The position numbers were made by a program, and so were the translations under genes. DNA of 51,645 bases from a virus. The first letter of the stretch is position 1, and each line of letters opens with the position of its first letter. Under the pieces are notes generated by a model. The model did not search any database. It was not told the DNA's origin and saw nothing but the letters and a program-made list of their open reading frames with translations. The DNA is taken from positions 1 through 51,645 of the IMG/VR virus record IMGVR_UViG_3300034198_023276. One strand, given 5' to 3'. This document shows, piece by piece, positions 1,851 through 28,511 of the stretch.

Positions 1851-2960
1851 TTAATCAATCGCTGTAGCTTTCCAAGCATTTAATTTTTCAATACTTGAAA
1901 CTCCATATCCATCAAGGTACTCCCCGTCAAAAAATAGCTTTAATCTATTCTTAGAAGATTGATCCATTTTCCACCACTCTTGATGGTCTTCCCAATGCAT
2001 GCTTCTTCCAACCCTATCATATCTATGATAGGCAAAGTTTTTAGGAGGTATAATTAAATTAACATCCTTATCATTAAATCTAGCTGATAATGTTGGTTCT
2101 TCTCCTGAAAAATATAGGGATTTATCATATGGAGTTTCTATAAACAATGCTGATTCTCCAAATGCAAAGTGACCTGAAAAATAATTTGTTTTCTCTCCAA
2201 ACACATCTCCAGCATAATCTTTATATGTACCTTCAAATGGTACTTCCCCTAAACTTTTCTTTAAGCGTACAGCAGTGGGGGTATTAGAAGAAAAATATTC
2301 TATTTTCCCATCTTTATAAGAATAAGGATACACGTATGTAGTATAGATTAATCTATACCATTTTTTCTTAGATTCTTTATAGCTTGATATAACATTTGAA
2401 TCCCAAGATTTTGGGAATTTCATATGACTATCTATTTGTAAGAAATAGTTATATGAAAGATTTAATTGTTCTTGTGCCATAGACCTAGCCCAACATGCAC
2501 CCTTTGATTCTTTATAGTTTATTTTATAATAATAAATTCCGCCAACTAAATTTTCTATGTCAGAAAAATCTGGATGTTCATTATCATCAGCTTGAGATAC
2601 TACAGAGAAGTGCAATCTTTTTGGATTTTCTGCATTTTCAATTGCAGAAACCATTGTATCTTTTAATTCTGGATCCCTATATGATGCTATTGATATTAAA
2701 ATAGATTCATTGCTTATCACTGGATATTGATATGGTGCCGATGCGGGAGGTATAAAATTTTCTCCATCAAAATCCCAGTTAACAATGTTAAACGATTGAT
2801 CTTTATCTTTATAAAAATCTGTAACATCAACTATAATTGGTTCACTAAGCATAATTGCAGAAAGTCTATCGTCTGTATGAAGAACATCTAGCACCTTCCC
2901 GTCAATAATATATGCAAGTTTATTTGATGGTACTTTGTTTTGATTTGTTTGATCTGACAT
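1851..2960 (-). CDS. GlcNAc-transferase-like glycosyltransferase with phage N-terminal domain
   Basis: 369 residues in two parts. Residues 1-72 form a small domain (KLAYIIDGKVLDVLHTDDRL...IVDVTD) that I associate with phage tail-region proteins. From about 84 onward it resembles the Skp1-type GlcNAc-transferase family: ILISIASYRDPEL (87-99), A-R-S at 158-160, the nucleotide-sugar/metal motif QIDSHMKF (D177, H179), then a later SGEEPTLSAR and a His-rich HRYDRVGRSMHWEDH. The expected reaction is transfer of GlcNAc or a related sugar from a UDP-sugar to a protein hydroxyl. Its place among tail adhesin genes suggests it may glycosylate a virion or host-surface protein. The ribosome binding site AGAGGAA overlaps the stop of the zinc-ribbon gene. 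The family call is good; donor and acceptor are unknown. Confidence 0.85.
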   Translation of the reverse strand: MSDQTNQNKVPSNKLAYIIDGKVLDVLHTDDRLSAIMLSEPIIVDVTDFYKDKDQSFNIVNWDFDGENFIPPASAPYQYPVISNESILISIASYRDPELKDTMVSAIENAENPKRLHFSVVSQADDNEHPDFSDIENLVGGIYYYKINYKESKGACWARSMAQEQLNLSYNYFLQIDSHMKFPKSWDSNVISSYKESKKKWYRLIYTTYVYPYSYKDGKIEYFSSNTPTAVRLKKSLGEVPFEGTYKDYAGDVFGEKTNYFSGHFAFGESALFIETPYDKSLYFSGEEPTLSARFNDKDVNLIIPPKNFAYHRYDRVGRSMHWEDHQEWWKMDQSSKNRLKLFFDGEYLDGYGVSSIEKLNAWKATAID

Positions 2961-2962
2961 TA

Positions 2963-3205
2963 TTATTCCTCTTCTTTATATGATACACGAACTTGTCCCC
3001 ATTTATGTTCAGGACATTCTGCATTTGGAAGCTTAGTTTTTAATTGCATAACACAACCACATTTACTGCAGTTACCAGTTGGTAACAAAAATGGACATTC
3101 TTTACAAATAGCATATCGTTCTTCCGCTATAATTGTTTCAACACGACCAAGATTTTTATTAAATAAATCCCAAGGTCTGGCTGGTCTATCAAATGGATCT
3201 GTCAT
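2963..3205 (-). CDS. Small zinc-ribbon protein
   Basis: 80 residues with Cys pairs C34-x2-C37 and C46-x2-C49, plus C51 and C64, in the frame CKECPFLLPTGNCSKCGC and NAECPEHKW. The leading RPWDLFNKN and the AEERYAICKECPF stretch are typical of a small zinc-ribbon family (DUF6171-like) common in phage tail and fibre regions. It most likely binds one zinc ion; its task is unknown, perhaps a virion assembly factor. It ends 2 bases before the glycosyltransferase start and provides that gene's ribosome binding site. Its own start has AGGAAA upstream. Confidence 0.8.
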   Translation of the reverse strand: MTDPFDRPARPWDLFNKNLGRVETIIAEERYAICKECPFLLPTGNCSKCGCVMQLKTKLPNAECPEHKWGQVRVSYKEEE

Positions 3206-8213: not shown

Positions 8214-11200
8214 TAATATGCTCCTAGTAGTATGTCCATTGCTTTGAATGGGTATTTTGTATTCGATGTATTTGTTGTAGGTCCCGCCATAATTCTTGCG
8301 TCAAATGTTGAACCAGCTGGTGGAGCTTCCGAGAAAGCCAAATATCCATCATCATCCACCATAAAGCCATCCGAACCGAACGGGGAATCCCAAACATATT
8401 CTGGATAACCTACTCTTTGAATTATACCATTTATTGTTAATAAAAGCCTAAAAGCATTTCCAATATATACTTTTTCTCCACGATATAGTGGCAAAAACCT
8501 ATTTTGAACTCCATCAAAATCATCTTGTAAATCATCAAGTGGTATGATATCATCAAAATCTGAAACAGATCCATCAGCCTTTAAATATTGATTTGCAGTT
8601 CCACCAGCTTTTCTTATACTGGTAGCAATTAAAGATCCATTAATATTAGTCAATCCTTCTATAGTTAATGATGGTGTTTTAATATTAATGTTATTTTCAT
8701 CTGGGAATATAATGTAATTGTAATAACTTGATGCTATTTCTGTTTGTACAAGTTTTGCCGTTCCGCCTGATACATAGGATCCTGTTTGAGTTGAAGATAT
8801 AGTAAAGGTATTTGAATTTGGCTCATATGGAGCAAATGCTGTGCCCATAACTGTAGCTGAACCAGTTGTTGAATTTGAAATTGTAAAAGTATTATTTGTT
8901 ACAGCAGTAATTAAAATTTCATATACAGTATATCCACCAGAAGGGGTTCCACCAGTAGTATTAAGTACAGTAACTAGCTGGCCTGGGACAAAGCCATGAG
9001 AAGAAGTTGTTGTGTAAGTTACAAAGCCAGAAGATGGTGTACTTGGTGCAACTGATTGTATTGTTGCTTTATTTACAAGAATATTTTGAGCTTTACTATT
9101 ACTATATAAAGTTGCAGAACCTGTTGTTGAATTCTGTATAGTAAATGTTGTGCTTGATATTGCAGTAATTGTTGCATCATCAACGCTATATCCACCAGTA
9201 GGTGTTCCTCCATCTATATCAATTATAGTAACTAAATCTCCTACAGAATATGTATGAGGAATTTTTGTTGTATATGTTACGTATCCTGAAGTTGGTGTAC
9301 TTGGAGTAACAGCAGTGATTATATGTGGATCACCGCCTAATACAGTTGCAATTGTATTATAATTTGAAGGAACAATTCCAGATATTGTTACTTTTTGTGC
9401 TACAGTAAAATTATTCTGAGATACAAAAGTTACTTTATTATTAAATGTATAAACTCCAGTAATTGAAGCATTTGAGTTTAAAAATGATATATTTGGATAC
9501 AAAGATCCATCTGGAGCTGCATCAGATCCAGCATGCATTATTATTCCAGAGGCGGTACCGTTAGAAGTATATCCTAATATATGTCCAACAGATGTTGTTC
9601 CTGCTCCTTTATAAAATGATATTGCACTTGAATTTGGATCAATCCATATAGGATTAGCTGTACTACCTGTTTTAATTGTACTATTTGTAATTGTTAATGC
9701 TGTATTATCGTAATACAATCTGTTAGCTAAACTGAACTGTCCCGTTCCATCTACATAGAATGGCGTATTAGAATTAGCATATGTAGGTGTTCCAGAAGAA
9801 ATTGCTATGATATTTGAAGCATCAGTAGCTCCAACATTAAGGGAAATAGTTTTACTTGTTCCGCCAGAAATTGCTAACGCTGATCCGTCCCACTTCAAAT
9901 AAGAAGATGTTGTTCCTACTCTAAATTGATTATTTGTAAACCACCAGTTATAAGCATCTAATCTTAAGCCTTCTCCAGATGAGTGGTAGTACGATTGACC
10001 TACAGTTCCTTCTGCTGGATGTAAGCCCAAAGTCATTTCTCTTAATGTTGCTGTAGCACCAGTAATTCCTGTTGTATTAGATATAGTGCCACCAGTTATT
10101 GCAACTGTAAATGTTGTAGTATTAACAACAGTAATTTGACGTGCACCATTTGCTGCAGCTGCGTTTCCTGTAAGTCCTTCAATAGTTACATATTCACCAG
10201 TTATAAAGGAATGAGTTGCAGTAGTAATTGTTGCTGCGGTAGATCCAGTTATATTTACACCAGAAATTGCTACCTGCAATTTGTTAGAAGGAATTAAAGT
10301 TACATTTTCTATTGCACCTCTAATTTTTCCAGATACTGTTAATTGGCCAAATGTGCCTACAGTTGTTGATGGTACAAATGTAAGCTGATCTTTAAGAGAA
10401 AATTGACCTGTTCCATCTACATAAAATCCAGTATTGGTATTTCCAAATGTTCCTGTACCTATATAAATCTTTTCGCCTGTTGCATCTAGCGTAATGTTGT
10501 TTGATGCTGACTTTAATGTTGTTGCACCTATTACCCAAGTTCCAATAGAACCAGATAATGAAGTTAAAGCTCCAGCTGTAGATAATGAAAATGTTGGAGT
10601 TGTGCCAGTTCCGCTATATCCCTTTATTCCTGTTGAATCAAATAATACTCCTGCTATAGCATTGGGAGTTCCCGTTCCTACACCTGTTGCTGTTTGGAAT
10701 TTACCACCAGTAAACGTTCCATTTGTAGAAGTTATTGAGCCATCTGAAGTTGAAATAGTTGTTACTGCAGTAGTTCCATTATAAGCAATTAATCCTGAAG
10801 AACTTAATTTAATGCCAGTATTTGCAGTAGCACTTGTTCGTATGGTACCTCCAGTAATTGTTCCATTTGCTATTAAATCTCCAGATAAAGATAAGATCCC
10901 AGTGGAAGCAACATATTGTAATACATCAGTGCCATCTCCTAATTTTAATCCAGAAGAGTCCCAATAATTATTTGAATCTATAGATAATGCATTTGCAGTA
11001 ACTGTTCCAGAAATTACAGCACCTGTAGCATATAGTTTTCCTTCTGCTGTTACTCTAAATGCTGCCAAAGATCTGTTTGCATAATTTTGTGCACCCGCCC
11101 AAATCACCGTATCTGTATTGGCGGTGGGTCCTGTTGGAGGAGTAATACCTACATAATATGAACTACCTGAACTATTTACTGTTATAGCAGATAGTCCTGT

Positions 11201-19664: not shown

Positions 19665-20161
19665 TATATCTCCGTAAAATCTATTTTAACGTTGACATAA
19701 TCATATCCAGTACTTGCGCTACTACTCACCATTCTTTTTTGAACATCGTAAGTAAAACCTGTCATGTAAGCCTGAAATACATCTCCTGTTGTTTTAAATG
19801 AATCAGAATATGTTGAATTGACTGGTACTGCGTTATAAGTTGCAGTAGTTTCTTTAGCATAAATTAATTTAACATAAATAGGCAAAAATACATTTCCATC
19901 ATAAAATGACTTCATCCATGCTGCTCCATGTCCACCTGCACTATAATCTACTACATTTGAATCTAGGGAAGGAAGGTTCTGCCAATCTGTTGAAATTTTC
20001 TTCTTGCTTGCAATAACATATTTTCTAAGTTTGCCGTTTGCCATGCGTTGAGAGGTCTCTATGTTTTCATAACTAATTTGAATAGGAGAACGGGAATGAT
20101 CAGATAACTTGTACCATGTTGAATTATCTAACGACACCTGAACACCTATTGCTATTTTCAT
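19664..20161 (-). CDS. Distal tail-like protein
   Basis: 165 residues, mixed beta composition (VQVSLDNSTWYKLSDHSRSPIQISYENIETSQRMANGKLRKYVIASKKKISTDWQNLPS). It sits between tape measure and hub protein, the place of the distal tail (Dit) protein that connects tube to tip. The strand-rich N-terminus resembles tube-like folds of tail tube and Dit proteins, but the Dit family is too divergent to name from sequence. Its ATG overlaps the tape measure stop by four bases (ATGA), and its stop overlaps the hub gene start by one base (TAATG), so the three are translationally coupled. Confidence 0.65.
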   Translation of the reverse strand: MKIAIGVQVSLDNSTWYKLSDHSRSPIQISYENIETSQRMANGKLRKYVIASKKKISTDWQNLPSLDSNVVDYSAGGHGAAWMKSFYDGNVFLPIYVKLIYAKETTATYNAVPVNSTYSDSFKTTGDVFQAYMTGFTYDVQKRMVSSSASTGYDYVNVKIDFTEI

Positions 20162-23100
20162 TGTGAAACAAACCTTCTATCCGTACTTGTCATAGCAGTA
20201 TTACGCTTTATAGTATCCATTACTGCTTTAGCAATATCATTGGCATCTGCATTAGATCCCGCATTTACTGTAATATTGAATGTACTACCCATTATACCAT
20301 TATTTTGGCTTGCAGGAATAATTGCTTCACCTTTATGTATTTGAGCAATCATATCGTTAGTAACGTAATTTGTTCCTACGTCAAATGAAGGTAATTTATA
20401 ATTAGCAAATCCACCTTTTGAAAAATGAGGTATGTGACCAGAAGGTAGTGTACGAACAGCTTCAAAAACATATTCACTTATGAATTTAGAAAAATTATTA
20501 CCACCTGACCAGTATTGATGTTTTCCTTCCCCAACAAATTCACCTGTCCCTGGAATTTTGTGTGCAAATGGATTAATTTCTTTTAAAACATATTCTGTAA
20601 ATGGTGCAATAAATTGTTCTTTGTCAGCTAAATTATATCTATTTCCACCTAGGCCTAAATCCATTAGGTTTGAAATTCCTTTAATATCTTTACCTAAAAT
20701 TATTTTTGCAATGGCATTCATTTCTCCACCACCAGTTCCACCTTTTGCTGCTATTGATTTAGCCCACTCTAGGCTATCTGTGGCAGATTTTCCAAGACCT
20801 GGTATCCATGAATCATTAATATTAATACCTTTATCAAAATCTCTAAACGCTGCTGCTGCTGGGTCATTAAAATTTGGTGCTGGTTTTCCAGATTTTGCAA
20901 TTAATTCTGTTGCATTTGTTTTCCATCTATTTGTAATGCTTTCCCAAGGAGACCCTTTTTTATAACCCACAATTTCTGCCAAATCATTTTGACTGAGTGC
21001 TCTATATACAGTTTGATCTTTACCAATTGTTTTTCTGGTAAGCATTGTATTAATTATTCCCCAGTCTTGATTTTGTGCAAACATAGGTCTGTCTGTATAT
21101 AATTGAAGTGAAGGAAGTCCTCCTGGAGGCGTATCAGTTTTTCTACCTAATTTAATTAATCTTAAAGAATCAGCAATTAGATCTTCATAATTTTTTATAA
21201 ATATTGGTTTGTCTTCTAGCTTAAAATAAGGCTTTCCTTCAAAAAATTCACCACTGTTTATTTTATTTAAACTAGATCTATATTCAGCAATACTCGCTTG
21301 ATAAGTTTTAATAGATTTAATTGTATCTGCGGATAATGAACGTGTTAAAGCTGAATGTTCTGCTGCTGGAACTGCTCCTTTTGTAGGAAGAAACATAGTT
21401 GCTGCAGATAAATAATCCATCCATTTTCCAGCTTTTTTATTACCAGTCTGTAATGAAAATGGACTTTGTGATGTTTTTCCTGCTAATGATCTATATATTG
21501 AAGGTATACCAGAAAATTCTTGTAAATCTTTATTTTGTTTTTTACTTGTGTTTGAAATGAATTGTGGGGCTAAACTATGTAATGCAGTTTGCCCTAGGGT
21601 ACCTAAATTTTCAAGTAATCCCGTCATCATAGACCCTGTAGCAGATTTATTAGACTGATTTTTAAATTTGTTCCATAATGCTGATACTCCGCCTAAGCTA
21701 CCATTAGCAAAATGTTGTGCATTTAATGAATCAAAAAATTCTGTGCCGTATTTACTTACCGTATCTGCTTTAATTACATATTCGCCATTTGAAAGGTAAG
21801 CGGGAATAGAATCAGATGTTGCTGTTCCTGCTCCTCTAATATGTCCACCATCTGCATACCCTCTAGCCTTAGTTAAAGCAGTTTTTGCAGAAGAAACTGC
21901 TTTATTATCAGAAATTATTAAAGAGGCTGGATATTTATCTAATCCCGATTTAGCTGTATTAAGTTCTGTTTTTGCAGAATTTAATGCTGTTGCTGCGGCA
22001 GTTTTAGCAGCACCTGCTTTTGCTTTATTATATTTTGTTTGTGCAGCTTTCATTTTTGAAGATGCTGTATTAAATTTTTTCTGTGCTGCAGCTTGTGCAA
22101 GCTGGTCAGATTTTAATTTTGCAGTTGCTTTATCAAGTGCTAACTGTGCTTTTACCATTGCAATAGTAGTTTTTTTAGCTTCTGCATCATTAATTTGTGA
22201 ATCAATAGATTGGTTATTATAATCTGCCCCATAAATATTTTGCAATACGTCTGTTGAATATGTCTTGCCTGCAAAACCAAATTGAATCCCTTGATCACTA
22301 TTATAATTAACTTTTTTAGCTTGTGCATATGCATTTGTTTTGGCATCAAATAATGTTTTTGCTGAACCTGTGCTAAAAGTAGTTACTTTATTTACTGTAG
22401 CTGAATTTGGAGCTGGTGCATTTGGGCCTTCTGCTCCAACATCAATATATTTACCTTTTTGAGTATCATAATTATATTGTCTTCCTTGATATGTAAATCC
22501 ACCTACTGCTGCTGATTCTGGAAATTGTTGTACAAGAAATGATCTTGCCTCATCAGATAAAGTTTTATAGTCATTACCTTTTGCATCCTTTTTTGTAACC
22601 ATCCAATTTTTACCTGTAAAACCAGATTGTCTTGCAGCTTTTTCTGTCATATCAGAAAGACCTGGTATGGCTGTTCCGCCTTGACCAGGGAGTGTAAGGT
22701 TTCCACCTTTTCCAGTGAGGCTGGTTGTTCCGTTACCATTTGATGATTTTACAGCAGTATTTGCATTTATAGCATCTGTATTTTTTTGTAAAGCTGCTTT
22801 ATCTTCATCTAATGCTAGCTGCATACTAGATACTAATTCTGCTTGTTTATCTGCTTGTGACTGAAGATCATTAAGATTTCCTTGATTAGCAAAATCAACA
22901 GTAGTACCAGTAAGTTGTTGTTGTAATAATGCTGCTTTCATAAAATCACCAGAAGCGTTAGCTAATCTGATTTGATTTTCAAGATCTGTCTTAGAAAGAT
23001 TAAATTGTTGTTGTCTTTGTATTTCTGAAGTAATATCTCTTTGTGTTTTTAATTGTTTATCAAGTATTGCTTTTTTATCTTTTTCAATTTTAAGAGATTT

Positions 23101-26100
23101 TTCTTCTTTTGCTATTCTATCATTAAGTTTTTTTAATTCTGCTGCAGAAAGTGTTGGTGATATTTTACCTGGATTAGTTCCTCCACCTGATTTTAGTGTT
23201 GCTGCATCTACAACGTTTATTGCTTTATTAAGTGCACTTTTAGGATCATTAAGTTGTTTTGCAAAATCTGCAGCATTTTCGAAAGCTAATGTTTTTCCAG
23301 ATGTTTTGCCCATTCCACTAAAATCAACATTATATCCACCAGCAGTAAGTTTTTGAGCAACTGCATTTGCTGAAAAAGCATCATACCCCGCTTGACCCAA
23401 TTGCACTACTGCTTGTGCAGCTTTTACATCTCCAATTCCCATTAAATAATTATATAACCCTTGAACTGTTTGTGATGCTGACAGTCCAGATTGTGCAATT
23501 CCATCGAGAATTGCTTTAAATTGTTCCCATGATGTTGTGTTTACAGCAAGATTTGATAAAGCACCCAAATTAGTTTGTAATGTTTTTGCATTTCCTGATG
23601 AGTCTGAAAGAAGTTTTTTAATTGCACCCAGCTGGGTAGGCAACGATGCAGATGTTGATGCTGCAATATCTGAATGTCCACCTAAAACTAGAATTAATTG
23701 AATCAATTTATCTGCATTTTCTTTACTTATACCATTAATTGCCATTTGCGTATTAACAAAATCTTGAGCTACTTTAGCTGCAGATCCTGAATTATGAGTC
23801 TCTTTAATTTTTTCAATTATTAATGATAATGGATCATTTGTTGGTAACGATGTAATTAATTTTTTAAATGAATTAAGTTCATTATTTGTATATTTAAGAT
23901 TTGAAGCTAATATCTCTGATTCACCATCATAGGTAGTAACAGTTTGTGTAAAATTAGATAATTGATGTTCTGTATTTGCTATAGATTGTCCAAAAAATTG
24001 CATTGCATTTGTGCTTGCAGTAAATGTTGCCTTTGCTTGTGCTTCATGTCTTTTTTCAATTTCAATAAGATGTTGTATACCACCATATGCAAATCCTGCA
24101 ACTGCTGCTGCACCTATAATATATGGGTTCATAGTCATAGATGCCATAGATGCCCATGAAGCTGATGTTCCTAATTCTTTTCCTACTCCTGGGACTTTTG
24201 CTAATTGCGGGGTGATCATTGGTGCAATCATCATTGCAGCCATACCAGCTCCCGCTCCCTTTCCTATTCCACCCTTAAATAAACCTTTAAGACCTTTTCC
24301 ACCACTAGCACCAATTTCTGCAGCACCTGCTAACTCTGCACCAGCTATTATAGTTGCAGGGATTTCATCCTGAATTCCTTTATCATAACCAATTCCAAAC
24401 CAACGTCCTAGCATTCTTGCAACAAATGATGGAGACTTACTCTTTTGAGTAGTTGCAACTGCAGTTATTGCAGCATTGGCAATTTTTTTACCTGCTACTG
24501 CAACTAGCGTATCTTGAGATATTCCTAATGCTAATCCTTGATTAAATTGTTGACCTAATTTACGTGCAACGGCTGTATACTCAGCAGATCCTTCTTGAAG
24601 AGTAAGAAGTTTATCTCTGCTATTTTTAATCTCTAGCATTAACGATTCATTATCTTTCATTTTTTGAATCTGAAGAAGATTTTCTTGTATCTTTTTATAT
24701 TCTATAGTTTGTTGTTTACCAGCATCTTGCAACATTTTTAATTCTTGCTGAAGTGTTTTTTGATATTCTACTTTTCTTGCATTAATTGATGTTGGGTCAA
24801 AAACTCTATCTGTAGCATTGACCCCTGGATTATCTTTAGCCCATTGTTTTACTTCAGTTAAATTTTTTCCTGAATTACTTGGAGTTACATAATTACTAGC
24901 TATAAGGTCTTCTTGAGCTCTTAACCTTCCACTTCCCCTTGCTTCAAGATATTGATTGGCGTGAAAAGCTGTTCTTGTTCTACCTTCAAGTATAATTTTT
25001 CCATCTTTGTCTACACCTTTAATCCATTTAGATGTAGGTTTTTTTCCTTCTGACCTAATTTTTGCAGCATCTGCTTCTACTTCTTTAACTATTGATTCTG
25101 TAAATTTTCCATAAAGCTGTGTTCCTATTTTACTATGTGGCTGTTCACCAACACTTATTTTTCTAAACTCTTCTTCTACTACCAATTGTTCTTCTTTAGA
25201 AACAGTTAATTTTAATTTATTTGCTGCTTCTCTTAATTTTTTCATTGCATCTTCAGTTAATTTTTCTGGTTTAGAAAATAAATTAAGAAGTCCATTTTCA
25301 GCACCACTGCCTAATCCTAGTTGTGATAATAGCCAAACTTTTTGATCATTTAATGGACCTGTAACGTGTGATGTTCCAAGATGTTGTAAATCTGGTTGAG
25401 TATAATTTTTTAACTGTTCTAGAGCTGATGGAGTTGCACCAATTGCAGATATTCTAGATTCTGCTTTTCTAGACTCTGATGCAATTGCCTCTCTATTTCC
25501 GCTTGCTGCAGATATATATTCTGCTGAGCCTTGTAATGTTGCTGGGGCTCCACGAGCTTTTGATCGATCAATAGCCATACTTTTAGAAGGACCAATAAAA
25601 GCTATCTCTCCATTTTCCATTTCTCCTTGCTTATCATTAAGTCCGATAGGTGTGTTTGGCTGACCTTGTGGATGTGGATGATAATGTTTTCCTGCATTAT
25701 GTTTTGGAAGTGTGCCTTGAATCATTCTAGAAATAAATCCTGAGTATTTCATTGATTGTGGATAAGGAATTACTGCTTCTCCTCCAGTAAGTAATGCTGG
25801 ATGAATATCTCCTTCTGATGGATTACCCTTTACAAATCCACCTGTTGCATATTTTGTTGGTCCCGCAAAACCTGGGACTCCTTGTGCAGACCTTGCAATA
25901 ACAGATCCTATTCCTCTTGTTGCAGACATTGCTGCAAGCATACCTTCCATATTAATAGTTAAATTTTTAATTGCTGAATTTAATAAATCAATTGATTCTA
26001 CATTACTCATAAGACCTGCATCAAAAATTTGTGATGCATTTTTGGCAGCAATTAATTCAGGTGTAAGCATAGTTCCTAATGTTTTTCCACCAGTTGCTAG

Positions 26101-27816
26101 TTGCTTGAGATTAAATGCACCTCTTATTAAGAAACCAACAAAGTTGCCTAACAGACCAGTTAACATGATAATTGGACCAGCAAGTGCTACTCCGACTGCT
26201 AGGGCACCAGCTAGTGATTTAAGTGGTCCTGGAAGTGAATCAAATATTTTTGCAATAGAATTTCCAAAATTAAGTAATTTAGTAGCAAAATCAAGTATCT
26301 TTTCGCCAATTGGAATCAAATTTGCTTTCATTGATTCAACTGCACGTTGAAATCTTCCAGTTGTTGATTCTATAGCAGTATTTAATTCTCCTTTTGCTAT
26401 TTTAGATAACTGAGTATCTGTTGCATTGGCAAGTTCAAAAGCTGTTTTAGTTTGACTATTTACTGCACCTAAATTAGTGATTAGTGCTTGAATTCTTGCT
26501 TCTTGAAATTTACCAAACATTTTTTCAATTAATTGTGCTTGTGCAAGTGGGGCTAAACCTTTTAATGCATCTTGCAATGCCATGATCATTTTGATTGGAT
26601 TTCCACCCGTAGATGTTGCTATAGATTCAACACTAATTCCATAATCCATAAATGCTTTTTTAGCAGCAGATGTTGGGTTAATTAATGAAGCAAGAGCAGA
26701 CTTAATAGCATTAGCAGATTGAGCTGCTGGAACTCCCGCCTCTTTCATAGCAACCATCATAATCGCTGTATCTTTAAAATCTCCACCTAATTGCTTTACA
26801 ATTGGTCCTACACGTGGAATTCCATCTACTAAATCTTGAAGACTTGTAGATGTTTGGTTTTCAACTGCATTAAGAAAATTTACTGCGCCTGATAATTTTT
26901 CTGTACTTAATTTATAAACATTTTGTAATGATATAGTTGCTTGCATTGCTTTTTGAGTATCTAATTCACCTAATTTTGTAAGTCTCATAGATTCTCTAGT
27001 GGCTGATAATAAATCTTTTCCTTGTAATCCCGTCGCTGCTAGATCTGCAGCCATTGCTGCAGTATCTTTAACTGCCATACCCATAGATGAAGCAAGTTCT
27101 TTAGATAAAGATAAAACTTCTCTTTTAATTTCAGAAAGTGCTGCTTTTGATGGTTGAACTAATCCCGTACCATATACTTTTTGTAGGCGAACAAGTTCCG
27201 TATTAACATCTTTAAATACTGATGTAGCCTGTTGTCCAAATAACATTAGTGGTACAGATAAGCCAACAGTTAATTGACGACCTGCCCACTGTGTATTTTT
27301 ACCCCAATTGATAAGAGCCTGGGATCCTTTGTTTACCGCAATAGCATATAGATTTGCTTCATTTGCTGCAATTTTAGTTGCATTAGCAACTTTATTTATA
27401 GTAGTTGGGGTAAATACAGATAATACGCCCTGTTTAGTAGGATCGTTCATTATTACAGAATTTTGTAATTTTGTTTGCTCTATTGCAAGTGCTTTCATCT
27501 GAGTTGTAGCTTCAGATGATCTACGCTTAATTATATTATAATAGTCAGTTAATTTTAGCTTTCCCGCTTCAAGTTGTTGACCAAATTTTTCTGTTTCTGA
27601 GGTCAGTTTTACCGTTGATACTGTAAATTGATTAGTTGACAACATTGTCTGCTTGAAAGCAGCATTCATTGCATTCAAATCTTTTGCCATGTTTGGATTT
27701 ATTCCAACTCCAGCAAGGTTACTTTGAAGTGCTATTACTTTTTCTTGTAATAATTTGATTTGGCTATTTACGGAAGAAAAATCACCAAGGGCTACTATAT
27801 TAAGTCTTAGATCCAA
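20158..27816 (-). CDS. Tape measure protein with ADP-ribosyltransferase-like domain
   Basis: 2552 residues. The N-terminal ~150 residues are helical coiled coil. Residues ~160-600 match the TP901-type tape measure core (WAGRQLTVGLSVPLMLFGQQATSVF, VNTELVRLQKVYG) with hydrophobic segments near 545-590 (LAGALAVGVALAGPIIMLTG). Gly-Gly...Gly-Glu-x-(V/I)-(I/P) linkers occur near 655-690, 1985-2040 and 2480-2505. A ~300-residue insert of unknown fold covers ~700-1000. Further hydrophobic stretches lie near 1160-1260, and coiled coil near 1565-1700 and 1870-1970. Residues ~2250-2415 resemble an R-S-E ADP-ribosyltransferase (R2272, S2344-A-T, D2398-x-E2400). I start at TTG 27816: the ribosome binding site GGGGTGAT is 6 bases upstream and no ATG fits. 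Length suggests a tail up to roughly 380 nm if all residues span it; inserts would shorten that. Confidence 0.93.
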   Translation of the reverse strand: MDLRLNIVALGDFSSVNSQIKLLQEKVIALQSNLAGVGINPNMAKDLNAMNAAFKQTMLSTNQFTVSTVKLTSETEKFGQQLEAGKLKLTDYYNIIKRRSSEATTQMKALAIEQTKLQNSVIMNDPTKQGVLSVFTPTTINKVANATKIAANEANLYAIAVNKGSQALINWGKNTQWAGRQLTVGLSVPLMLFGQQATSVFKDVNTELVRLQKVYGTGLVQPSKAALSEIKREVLSLSKELASSMGMAVKDTAAMAADLAATGLQGKDLLSATRESMRLTKLGELDTQKAMQATISLQNVYKLSTEKLSGAVNFLNAVENQTSTSLQDLVDGIPRVGPIVKQLGGDFKDTAIMMVAMKEAGVPAAQSANAIKSALASLINPTSAAKKAFMDYGISVESIATSTGGNPIKMIMALQDALKGLAPLAQAQLIEKMFGKFQEARIQALITNLGAVNSQTKTAFELANATDTQLSKIAKGELNTAIESTTGRFQRAVESMKANLIPIGEKILDFATKLLNFGNSIAKIFDSLPGPLKSLAGALAVGVALAGPIIMLTGLLGNFVGFLIRGAFNLKQLATGGKTLGTMLTPELIAAKNASQIFDAGLMSNVESIDLLNSAIKNLTINMEGMLAAMSATRGIGSVIARSAQGVPGFAGPTKYATGGFVKGNPSEGDIHPALLTGGEAVIPYPQSMKYSGFISRMIQGTLPKHNAGKHYHPHPQGQPNTPIGLNDKQGEMENGEIAFIGPSKSMAIDRSKARGAPATLQGSAEYISAASGNREAIASESRKAESRISAIGATPSALEQLKNYTQPDLQHLGTSHVTGPLNDQKVWLLSQLGLGSGAENGLLNLFSKPEKLTEDAMKKLREAANKLKLTVSKEEQLVVEEEFRKISVGEQPHSKIGTQLYGKFTESIVKEVEADAAKIRSEGKKPTSKWIKGVDKDGKIILEGRTRTAFHANQYLEARGSGRLRAQEDLIASNYVTPSNSGKNLTEVKQWAKDNPGVNATDRVFDPTSINARKVEYQKTLQQELKMLQDAGKQQTIEYKKIQENLLQIQKMKDNESLMLEIKNSRDKLLTLQEGSAEYTAVARKLGQQFNQGLALGISQDTLVAVAGKKIANAAITAVATTQKSKSPSFVARMLGRWFGIGYDKGIQDEIPATIIAGAELAGAAEIGASGGKGLKGLFKGGIGKGAGAGMAAMMIAPMITPQLAKVPGVGKELGTSASWASMASMTMNPYIIGAAAVAGFAYGGIQHLIEIEKRHEAQAKATFTASTNAMQFFGQSIANTEHQLSNFTQTVTTYDGESEILASNLKYTNNELNSFKKLITSLPTNDPLSLIIEKIKETHNSGSAAKVAQDFVNTQMAINGISKENADKLIQLILVLGGHSDIAASTSASLPTQLGAIKKLLSDSSGNAKTLQTNLGALSNLAVNTTSWEQFKAILDGIAQSGLSASQTVQGLYNYLMGIGDVKAAQAVVQLGQAGYDAFSANAVAQKLTAGGYNVDFSGMGKTSGKTLAFENAADFAKQLNDPKSALNKAINVVDAATLKSGGGTNPGKISPTLSAAELKKLNDRIAKEEKSLKIEKDKKAILDKQLKTQRDITSEIQRQQQFNLSKTDLENQIRLANASGDFMKAALLQQQLTGTTVDFANQGNLNDLQSQADKQAELVSSMQLALDEDKAALQKNTDAINANTAVKSSNGNGTTSLTGKGGNLTLPGQGGTAIPGLSDMTEKAARQSGFTGKNWMVTKKDAKGNDYKTLSDEARSFLVQQFPESAAVGGFTYQGRQYNYDTQKGKYIDVGAEGPNAPAPNSATVNKVTTFSTGSAKTLFDAKTNAYAQAKKVNYNSDQGIQFGFAGKTYSTDVLQNIYGADYNNQSIDSQINDAEAKKTTIAMVKAQLALDKATAKLKSDQLAQAAAQKKFNTASSKMKAAQTKYNKAKAGAAKTAAATALNSAKTELNTAKSGLDKYPASLIISDNKAVSSAKTALTKARGYADGGHIRGAGTATSDSIPAYLSNGEYVIKADTVSKYGTEFFDSLNAQHFANGSLGGVSALWNKFKNQSNKSATGSMMTGLLENLGTLGQTALHSLAPQFISNTSKKQNKDLQEFSGIPSIYRSLAGKTSQSPFSLQTGNKKAGKWMDYLSAATMFLPTKGAVPAAEHSALTRSLSADTIKSIKTYQASIAEYRSSLNKINSGEFFEGKPYFKLEDKPIFIKNYEDLIADSLRLIKLGRKTDTPPGGLPSLQLYTDRPMFAQNQDWGIINTMLTRKTIGKDQTVYRALSQNDLAEIVGYKKGSPWESITNRWKTNATELIAKSGKPAPNFNDPAAAAFRDFDKGININDSWIPGLGKSATDSLEWAKSIAAKGGTGGGEMNAIAKIILGKDIKGISNLMDLGLGGNRYNLADKEQFIAPFTEYVLKEINPFAHKIPGTGEFVGEGKHQYWSGGNNFSKFISEYVFEAVRTLPSGHIPHFSKGGFANYKLPSFDVGTNYVTNDMIAQIHKGEAIIPASQNNGIMGSTFNITVNAGSNADANDIAKAVMDTIKRNTAMTSTDRRFVSQ

Positions 27817-27822
27817 TTAATA

Positions 27823-28448
27823 TCACCCCCCCATTTGCATAAAGCCAAGTCCTTCATCTAATCCGAAGCCTTCTTCTCTTGCAACAAATTTTTGATTCAA
27901 GTCCAAAACATCATTTAAACTATCTTCAATTGGTGTTGAATCATCAAGATCAACCCCATTTATTGCTGCAAAAAACTTCCTTTCACGTTGTTCTTTTTCT
28001 CTTGATGCTTTCAATGTTGCCATTAATTCATCAATTGAAAGATTACTTTCTAGCTCATCATAATTTTTCCAATGACCGAGCAAGAAAACTTCAGACTCCA
28101 AGGAGCTTAGATCTAGTCCGTCCCAACTAGAGCCGCTCCCAGAAGGTTTGGGTCTGTGAGTTTCAAACCACCAGCAACTTCTAGAATCTTCATCATAGTA
28201 GGAATTTCAATTACTTCTTCAAACTTATCTCTATCTTTTGCAAGTTCTGGCATAGTTGTTTCCAAGCAAGCCATAGCTGCTTCAATAAAAATTTCCATTG
28301 CTGCATCTTCTGATGCATTTTCTTCAAGATCCATCTTTTGAATGATTTTCATGAACTTTCTAAGTTGCTTGATTGCAAGCGGTTTAATGACTAGTTCATC
28401 ACCATTTGATAATTCAATTTCTAATGTATCGTATACTGTTGTTGCCAA
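27823..28448 (-). CDS. Tail assembly chaperone, -1 frameshift long form (gpGT-like)
   Basis: The long form joins residues 1-101 of the short chaperone to 107 residues read in the -1 frame, giving 208 residues. After Pro-Asn the shifted product continues PSGSGSSWDGLDLSSLESEV, a flexible Gly-Ser junction, then a GHWKNYDELESN...DELMATLKASREKEQRERKFF helical part. The -1 frame is open from before the heptamer through to the stop at 27823. The segment alone could only start at a TTG (28101) without a proper ribosome binding site, which supports the fusion. The stop is 6 bases before the tape measure start. This is the classical lambda G/GT arrangement. Confidence 0.85.
28102..28152 (-). other. Programmed -1 frameshift signal (slippery heptamer plus stem-loop)
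   Basis: The heptamer C-CCA-AAC (28146-28152) fits X-XXY-YYZ in the zero frame. Six bases downstream a stem can form: GGAGC (28135-28139) with GCTCC (28102-28106), enclosing a 6-bp stem TCTAGT (28126-28131) with ACTAGA (28112-28117) and an 8-base loop. Both frames are open across it. The spacing and parts are as expected for stimulated -1 slippage; the fold itself is a by-eye prediction. Confidence 0.85.
28113..28448 (-). CDS. Tail assembly chaperone, short form (gpG-like)
   Basis: 111 residues, acidic and helical (IKPLAIKQLRKFMKIIQKMDL..., EDAAMEIFIEAAMACLETTMPELAKDRDKFEEVI), typical of the first tail chaperone placed between major tail protein and tape measure. It binds the tape measure protein and recruits tail tube subunits. 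The start is TTG at 28448 with AAAGGAG 7 bases upstream; no ATG exists nearby. A slippery heptamer at codons 100-101 lets some ribosomes shift to the -1 frame and make the longer form. Confidence 0.88.
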   Translation of the reverse strand: MATTVYDTLEIELSNGDELVIKPLAIKQLRKFMKIIQKMDLEENASEDAAMEIFIEAAMACLETTMPELAKDRDKFEEVIEIPTMMKILEVAGGLKLTDPNLLGAALVGTD

Positions 28449-28475
28449 TTTATTTCTCCTTTGTTTATTAGTTAA

Positions 28476-28484
28476 ATTATACCA
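28476..28484 (-). promoter_or_regulatory. Extended -10 promoter-like site
   Basis: TGGTATAAT lies in the gap between the major tail gene and the chaperone gene, just downstream of a strong hairpin. A start about 7 bases later leaves a ~20-base leader containing AAAGGAG. Confidence 0.6.
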
Positions 28485-28511
28485 AAATTATTAATCAATA
28501 CAAATTCAAGA

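What the first reader, a model, noticed from the sequence alone, without database searches (positions are those of the whole stretch)
20560..21070. ADP-ribosyltransferase-like domain inside the tape measure protein
Residues ~2250-2415 have the order of an R-S-E ADP-ribosyltransferase. There is a strand with Arg (QTVYRALSQND, R2272), then a GKSATDSLEWAKSIA segment resembling the Ser-Thr-Ser plus helix element (S2344), then MNAIAKIILGKDIKGI and LADKEQFIAP, with an acidic-x-Glu pair (D2398, E2400) as in the catalytic end. The surrounding tape measure Gly-rich linkers suggest it was inserted as a unit. Tape measure proteins are released into the cell at infection, so this would be an injected effector modifying a host target, conceptually like T4 Alt but carried in the tail. 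Fold and activity are predictions from motifs.
Basis: partly seen in the sequence, partly recalled or inferred. Interest (0 to 1): 0.82.

Follow-up and report, generated by a model that had tools for sequence, protein, structure and literature searches.

The report
Swappable enzyme cargo in phage tail
This virus's tail-length protein carries an extra, exchangeable block near its end; in related viruses the same protein carries a block that is predicted with good confidence to be a protein-modifying enzyme (an ADP-ribosyltransferase), but for the block in this particular virus that identity remains only a suggestion.

Summary
As a motif they are not beyond chance: between the 90th and 95th percentile of 700 TMP segments, and between the 95th and 99th of the segment's own shuffles. 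No profile library, PDB search or profile comparison links this domain to an ADP-ribosyltransferase (ART). Its only relative found is one identical contig; a single-sequence AlphaFold2 model was useless.

The wider idea holds in sister phages. The candidate lies in an exchangeable cassette (residues about 2041-2467) between two conserved TMP linkers. Relatives L003 and L005 carry an ART-like domain in this very slot. Two TMPs 96% identical on both sides carry unrelated cassettes. The same ART family occurs in 50 contigs, 48 with a matching TMP N-terminus in the same ORF; R, S and E-x-E are invariant in 37 non-redundant members. AlphaFold2 of that family (pLDDT 81, pTM 0.78) has only ARTs among its nine best PDB matches.

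Verdict: tail-carried ART cargo is a well-supported prediction for sister TMPs and a new variant of a known kind. For this window's domain I put ART identity at about 0.45.

The parts
20158..27816 (-). tape measure protein gene (2552 aa, TTG start)
   Evidence: open frame; PhageMin_Tail E 3e-31; phrog_10030 tape measure E 6e-103
26512..27105 (-). PhageMin_Tail core of the TMP, residues 238-435, within the region used to find the sister TMPs
   Evidence: Pfam PF10145; alignment A1
21697..21834 (-). upstream linker, about residues 1995-2040 (SDSIPAYLSNGEYVIKADTVSKYG...), shared with sister TMPs
   Evidence: positions; sequences
20416..21696 (-). exchangeable cargo cassette, about residues 2041-2467; unrelated to the cassettes of sister TMPs
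   Evidence: no blastp match to the cassettes of L003, L005, L006, L007, L009, L010 or L041
20542..21084 (-). candidate ADP-ribosyltransferase-like domain, about residues 2245-2425 (unproven)
   Evidence: motif order only; no profile support
21001..21003 (-). codon of R2272 (VYRAL), candidate first catalytic Arg
   Evidence: sequence; best R position in the motif scan of this segment
20785..20787 (-). codon of S2344 (GKSATDSLEWA), candidate Ser of the S-x-S/T element
   Evidence: sequence; best S position in the motif scan of this segment
20617..20625 (-). codons of D2398-K-E2400 (DKEQFIAP), candidate acidic-x-Glu
   Evidence: sequence; scores no better than E2426 in the motif scan
20161..20415 (-). 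conserved C-terminal tail of the TMP, residues 2468-2552 (FDVGTNYVTNDMIAQIHKGEAIIP...)
   Evidence: 49-82% identical to seven sister TMPs; the motif recurs in most of 36 contigs

Best explanation
The window's tape measure protein has an exchangeable cargo slot near its C-terminus, bounded by a GEYVI-type linker and a conserved DMIAQIHKGE-type tail. The slot holds different enzyme-like cassettes in different phages of a group that probably infects Actinobacteria. In sister TMPs the cargo is a predicted R-S-E ADP-ribosyltransferase, in the same slot (L003, L005) or some hundreds of residues upstream (most others). The likely working: the cargo is built into the tail with the TMP, leaves the tail with it at the start of infection, and modifies a host target before phage genes are expressed. 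Supported by computation: the slot, the cassette difference, the sister ART family and its predicted fold. Inferred: delivery into the cytoplasm, activity and target. For the window's own cassette the favoured single identity, unproven, is a very divergent ART (my probability about 0.45); otherwise it is another effector in the same slot. The confidence given is for the cargo-slot reading.
For: Sister TMPs with N-terminal 640 residues 52-73% identical to the window carry unrelated cassettes at this point while the tail stays 49-82% identical. L005 and L007 are 96% identical on both protein flanks; DNA similarity stops in the linker (L005 8111-8179) and resumes at 9010 where the tail starts. 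An R-S-E family was reached from L003, L079 and L124: 50 contigs, 48 with a window-like TMP N-terminus in the same ORF; R44, S86, E153 and E155 invariant in 37 sequences. Held-out motif scores, trained on known phage ARTs only, are 8.6-21.6, from just under the 99th percentile (8.9) to above all 700 decoys. AlphaFold2 pLDDT 81, pTM 0.78, with R and S on strands and E-x-E just before a long strand. The nine best PDB matches are all ARTs (probability 0.75-1.00), and 17 viral matches have E <= 0.001, several named ART. WhiB genes in 8 of 25 related contigs point to actinobacterial hosts. Precedents: the C-terminal muralytic part of the T5 TMP is cut off, stays at the tail tip and is expelled first (PMC10038345); the P23-45 TMP carries an RNA polymerase (PMC10770324).
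Against: The window's cassette matches nothing but an identical contig. Comparison with the sister ART profile gives probability 0.1-0.3% and does not align the motifs. The motif score lies within decoys and below every held-out sister ART. The sister ART itself matches no Pfam, PHROG, NCBIfam or PDB sequence profile; its support is motif conservation, a weak profile match (P 0.0015, probability 17%) and a predicted fold with modest TM-scores (0.42-0.47 to the PDB matches). Nothing shows that the cassette stays in the mature virion or enters the cytoplasm.
Confidence: 0.65

Rival explanations
1. The window's cassette is not an ART but another cargo domain of unknown fold in the same slot; the order of R2272, S2344 and E2400 is chance.
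For: Motif within decoys; no profile link; other slot cassettes (L006, L009, L010) also look unlike R-S-E ARTs; cargo in this TMP group is varied, with OmpA, CHAP, NlpC/P60 and weak kinase-like matches.
Against: The order and spacing R-72-S-56-E fall in or close to the range of the sister family (R-S 35-66, S-E 50-69), and L003 and L005 carry an ART in this exact slot.
Confidence: 0.5
2. The cassette is a structural or envelope-acting part of the TMP (tail length, pore formation, or cell wall digestion as in mycobacteriophage TM4 and T5), not a cytoplasmic effector.
For: TMPs of mycobacteriophages are known to carry peptidoglycan hydrolase motifs (PMC1796659); CHAP and NlpC/P60 domains occur in sister TMPs.
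Against: No hydrolase match in the window's cassette. A length-setting or pore-forming part should be conserved, yet cassettes are unrelated between TMPs with 96% identical flanks. ARTs use NAD, which is cytoplasmic (general knowledge).
Confidence: 0.25
3. The sister 'ART family' is an ART fold without enzyme activity, kept for binding.
For: No biochemical data; modest TM-scores.
Against: All catalytic positions are invariant in 37 non-redundant sequences down to about 33% identity to the reference, as expected for selected catalysis.
Confidence: 0.15

Closest known systems
MuF-VIP2 and portal-fused ADP-ribosyltransferases of phages (e.g. Microbacterium phages Percival and Goodman, PMC7302621; survey PMC9503650)
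   Same: R-S-E type ART fused to a virion structural protein, predicted to enter with the DNA; the S and E-x-E elements of the sister-TMP family align with them.
   Different: Those are head or portal proteins; here the carrier is the tail tape measure protein. The survey of 21,191 viral proteomes does not contain the word 'tape' in its main text.
Phage T4 Alt, ModA and ModB
   Same: R-S-E phage ARTs; Alt is virion-borne and injected; working analogy for early modification of host proteins.
   Different: Alt is a separate internal head protein; ModA and ModB, used here in the known-ART profile, show no significant relation to the window's domain.
Tape measure proteins with enzyme domains: Thermus phage P23-45 TMP-RNA polymerase (PMC10770324), T5 pb2 (PMC10038345), mycobacteriophage TM4 (PMC1796659)
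   Same: A TMP carries an enzyme used at the start of infection; in T5 it is C-terminal and at the tail tip.
   Different: Activities are RNA polymerase or cell wall hydrolysis, not an ART; no cassette exchange of this kind is described in the passages read.
Tape-measure-related effectors of Streptomyces contractile injection systems, Tme (PMC11126660) and Sle1 (PMC13277306)
   Same: TMP-like proteins of actinobacterial tail-like particles with a variable functional C-terminal domain.
   Different: Those belong to cellular injection systems, and the domains described include a nuclease and a growth-modulating domain; here the carrier is the true TMP of phages.

Membership tests
R-S-E ADP-ribosyltransferase (window domain, residues 2245-2425) | Arg on first strand, S-x-S/T element, E/Q-x-E in this order with ART-like spacing, beyond chance | tested here: inconclusive
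   Order present (R2272, S2344-A-T, D2398-K-E2400); score at 90th-95th percentile of decoys and 95th-99th of shuffles
R-S-E ADP-ribosyltransferase (window domain, residues 2245-2425) | profile or sequence match to known ARTs | tested here: not met
   No Pfam, PHROG, NCBIfam or PDB match; hhalign probability 0.1-0.6%
R-S-E ADP-ribosyltransferase (window domain, residues 2245-2425) | ART split beta-sheet fold | tested here: inconclusive
   AlphaFold2 without homologues, pLDDT 32, pTM 0.18
R-S-E ADP-ribosyltransferase (window domain, residues 2245-2425) | catalytic residues conserved in homologues | not testable with these tools
   Only one, identical, relative found
R-S-E ADP-ribosyltransferase (sister TMP family, L003/L005/L159 and others) | conserved R, S-x-S/T, E-x-E | tested here: met
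   R44, S86, E153 and E155 invariant, S or T at 88, in all 37 sequences
R-S-E ADP-ribosyltransferase (sister TMP family, L003/L005/L159 and others) | ART fold | tested here: met
   By prediction only: model pLDDT 81, pTM 0.78; nine best PDB matches all ARTs (probability 0.75-1.00, TM-score 0.42-0.47); 17 viral matches with E <= 0.001, several named ART
R-S-E ADP-ribosyltransferase (sister TMP family, L003/L005/L159 and others) | NAD-dependent ADP-ribosyl transfer | not testable with these tools
   Needs biochemistry
Phage tape measure protein | PhageMin_Tail or PHROG TMP profile and gene position after tail chaperones | tested here: met
   PF10145 E 3e-31; phrog_10030; overlapping upstream ORFs 27823-28206 and 28113-28487
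T4 Alt-like injected ART | shown to be packaged in the virion and injected | not testable with these tools
   Inferred only from fusion to the TMP

The most novel reading that the evidence does not exclude
Tape measure proteins of a large group of actinobacterial phages are modular delivery proteins: a slot near the C-terminus (and others upstream) takes exchangeable effector cassettes, among them R-S-E ARTs, possible second-type ARTs, kinase-like and metallopeptidase-like domains, much as polymorphic toxins do, but carried in the tail of an infecting phage. The window's cassette is one of these and is itself a divergent ART.
Probability: 0.3. Interest if true: 0.8.

Novelty: new variant of a known kind. 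Interest (0 to 1): 0.6.

Why it matters
Phage ARTs delivered at infection are known from the head (T4 Alt) and predicted on MuF and portal proteins. A family of ARTs built into the tape measure protein would put a host-modifying enzyme in a part of the virion that leaves the tail at the start of infection, and would explain part of the unexplained length and variability of these proteins. Cassette exchange between near-identical TMPs marks a place to look for early anti-host effectors. The sister ART sequences tested matched no Pfam, PHROG or NCBIfam model at a meaningful level, so the family would be missed by standard annotation.

Tried and rejected
Pfam, NCBIfam, PHROG and PDB searches with the window's domain: nothing relevant. 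PDB profile searches with the sister family: nothing. PF03496 in 25 related records: none. Homologues of the window's domain in viral contigs with three pattern sets, and in named phages and plasmids: only the identical contig L002, or nothing. The loci other than L002 share the C-terminal tail, not the candidate domain. Sister ART in 84,980 prokaryote species genomes: none confirmed. MAFFT alignment of the window's domain with the sister family puts R in register but not S and E, so I ran no further search on that forced alignment and used it on the sister family instead. Some high decoy scores of the sister profile probably came from segments of L003-L005 themselves, which that decoy set had not excluded (a profile search of all ORFs found no further members but L079). 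Considered and not adopted: filing the window's domain as an ART because DKEQFIAPFTEYVL resembles the end of known ARTs; that is a resemblance by eye and the score does not support it.

Full report
What was checked. The window is a linear virus record of 51,645 bases, G+C 35%. The finding lies in a 2552-aa open frame on the minus strand, 20158-27816, which is a tape measure protein by Pfam (PF10145, E 3e-31) and PHROG (E 6e-103). Portal, protease and head genes lie upstream.

Is the motif more than chance? I built position scores for the three catalytic elements from 11 known phage ARTs (Percival, Goodman, T4 ModA and ModB and others) and seven sister-TMP ARTs, and searched for the best ordered triad. 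The window's domain picks R2272 and S2344 but scores 2.4 (2.3 with E2400). Among 700 segments of other TMPs the 90th and 95th percentiles are 1.8 and 4.9; among 500 shuffles of the same segment the 95th and 99th percentiles are 1.6 and 6.6. A better triad occurs by chance elsewhere in the same TMP. The motif is therefore suggestive at best. Two limits of this test: seven of the 18 training sequences are the sister ARTs, and the allowed R-S spacing was set at 30-85 residues, which excluded some true training triads (part of the 'shifted' rows).

No independent line links the window's domain to ARTs. Pfam, NCBIfam, PHROG and PDB searches are empty for it. Profile comparison with known phage ARTs and with the sister family gives probabilities of 0.1-0.6%, inside the decoy range. 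Three pattern searches of viral contigs returned only one contig with the same domain, identical to the window. AlphaFold2 without an alignment gave pLDDT 32, which says nothing either way.

The surroundings. The domain lies between two TMP motifs: a linker with GEYVI at residue 2011, and a conserved tail with DMIAQIHKGEAIIP. Sister TMPs with the same linker and tail carry other sequences between them. In a set of eight such TMPs the N-terminal 640 residues are 50-96% identical and the tails 49-96%, while blastp at E <= 0.01 finds only L003 with L005, and a 54-residue weak match of L041 with L006, between cassettes. A wider comparison of 20 TMPs links 13 longer cassettes through shared pieces, among them L007, L010 and L041, so the cassettes are not all unrelated to one another. 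The clearest case is L005 against L007: 96% identical on both sides, with DNA similarity ending in the linker and resuming at the first bases of the tail.

The sister ART family. The L003 and L005 cassettes read as an R-S-E ART (WRG, RSWT, EAE). A weak match in L079 led to an alignment, then to L124 and to 23 and 51 loci. Of 50 contigs with the domain, 48 have the window-type TMP N-terminus in the same open frame; the other two, L163 and L194, showed no such match. In 37 non-redundant sequences R44, G45, S86, W87, E153 and E155 are invariant. In most TMPs the domain lies at about residues 1100-1640; in L003 and L005 it lies at the window's slot.

Is that family an ART? Held-out motif scores are 8.6-21.6 when trained only on known phage ARTs, close to the 99th percentile of decoys (8.9) or above, up to above all 700. 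Profile comparison with 13 known phage ARTs aligns the S and E-x-E elements (P 0.0015, probability 17%). AlphaFold2 on the 37-sequence alignment gives pLDDT 81 and pTM 0.78, with R on the first strand, S on the second and E-x-E just before a long strand. In the PDB the nine best matches are all ADP-ribosyltransferases (probability 0.75-1.00, E 1.3e-3 to 0.09, TM-score 0.42-0.47), and the next match has probability 0.33; in viral predicted structures 17 matches have E <= 0.001, several named ART. The TM-scores are modest and the alignment is shallow, so I call this a well-supported prediction, not a demonstration.

Hosts. The TMP core resembles those of Streptomyces and Gordonia phages, and WhiB, an actinobacterial regulator family, is encoded in 8 of 25 related contigs, including L010 of the nearest clade, though not in the window's record or L002. 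The sister ART has no confirmed relative in 84,980 prokaryote species genomes.

How it most likely works. A cassette at the C-terminal end of a TMP would be built into the tail and leave with the TMP. In T5 the C-terminal muralytic part of the TMP is cleaved, held at the tail tip and expelled first (PMC10038345), and in P23-45 an RNA polymerase is part of the TMP (PMC10770324). By analogy with T4 Alt the sister ART would modify a host protein before phage genes are expressed. Delivery, activity and target are inference. For the window's cassette I weigh the slot (known to hold an ART in L003 and L005) against the weak motif and the missing profile link, and put ART identity near 0.45.

What is known. 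ARTs on MuF and portal proteins are described (PMC9503650, PMC7302621), as are multidomain injected proteins (PMC5512222), enzyme-bearing TMPs (above) and TMP-related effectors of Streptomyces injection systems (PMC11126660, PMC13277306). Searches of the open-access library for tape measure proteins together with ADP-ribosyltransferase or effector terms gave no report of an ART inside a TMP among the titles and passages seen; I read selected passages of nine papers, and most subscription journals and preprints are not held. I therefore rate it a new variant of a known kind.

Noticed in passing
L095, TMP residues about 2680-3160: OmpA domain (E 3e-17) followed by a kinase-like stretch (ABC1 E 0.001, APH E 0.006; GHGDMHPGNLLL...AFDWG) inside a tape measure protein.
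   Followed up: partly
L106, L073, L098, TMP C-terminal regions: CHAP (L106) and NlpC/P60 (L073) domains, and zinc-peptidase-like HELGH, HELRH and HEFGH motifs seen by eye.
   Followed up: partly
L067, TMP residues about 960-1070: HAD-phosphatase-like motif (AYDIDETLAETKG...VILTARTE) in the variable region after the TMP core; judged by eye only.
   Followed up: no
L041 14495-15526, cassette residues about 80-166; similar stretch in L082: Cassette with GMGFFSTSSKNEAERYA that weakly matches DUF3990 (E 0.04) and an Alt-like ART PHROG (E 0.14): possibly a second, differently built ART in the same slot.
   Followed up: partly
L079 8521-8523: In-frame TAA separates the TMP frame from a same-frame ORF that holds the ART's first two motifs; the contig ends before the third.
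   Followed up: no
window 27823-28206 and 28113-28487, minus strand: Overlapping open frames in different frames just upstream of the TMP gene, the usual place of tail assembly chaperones made by frameshifting.
   Followed up: no
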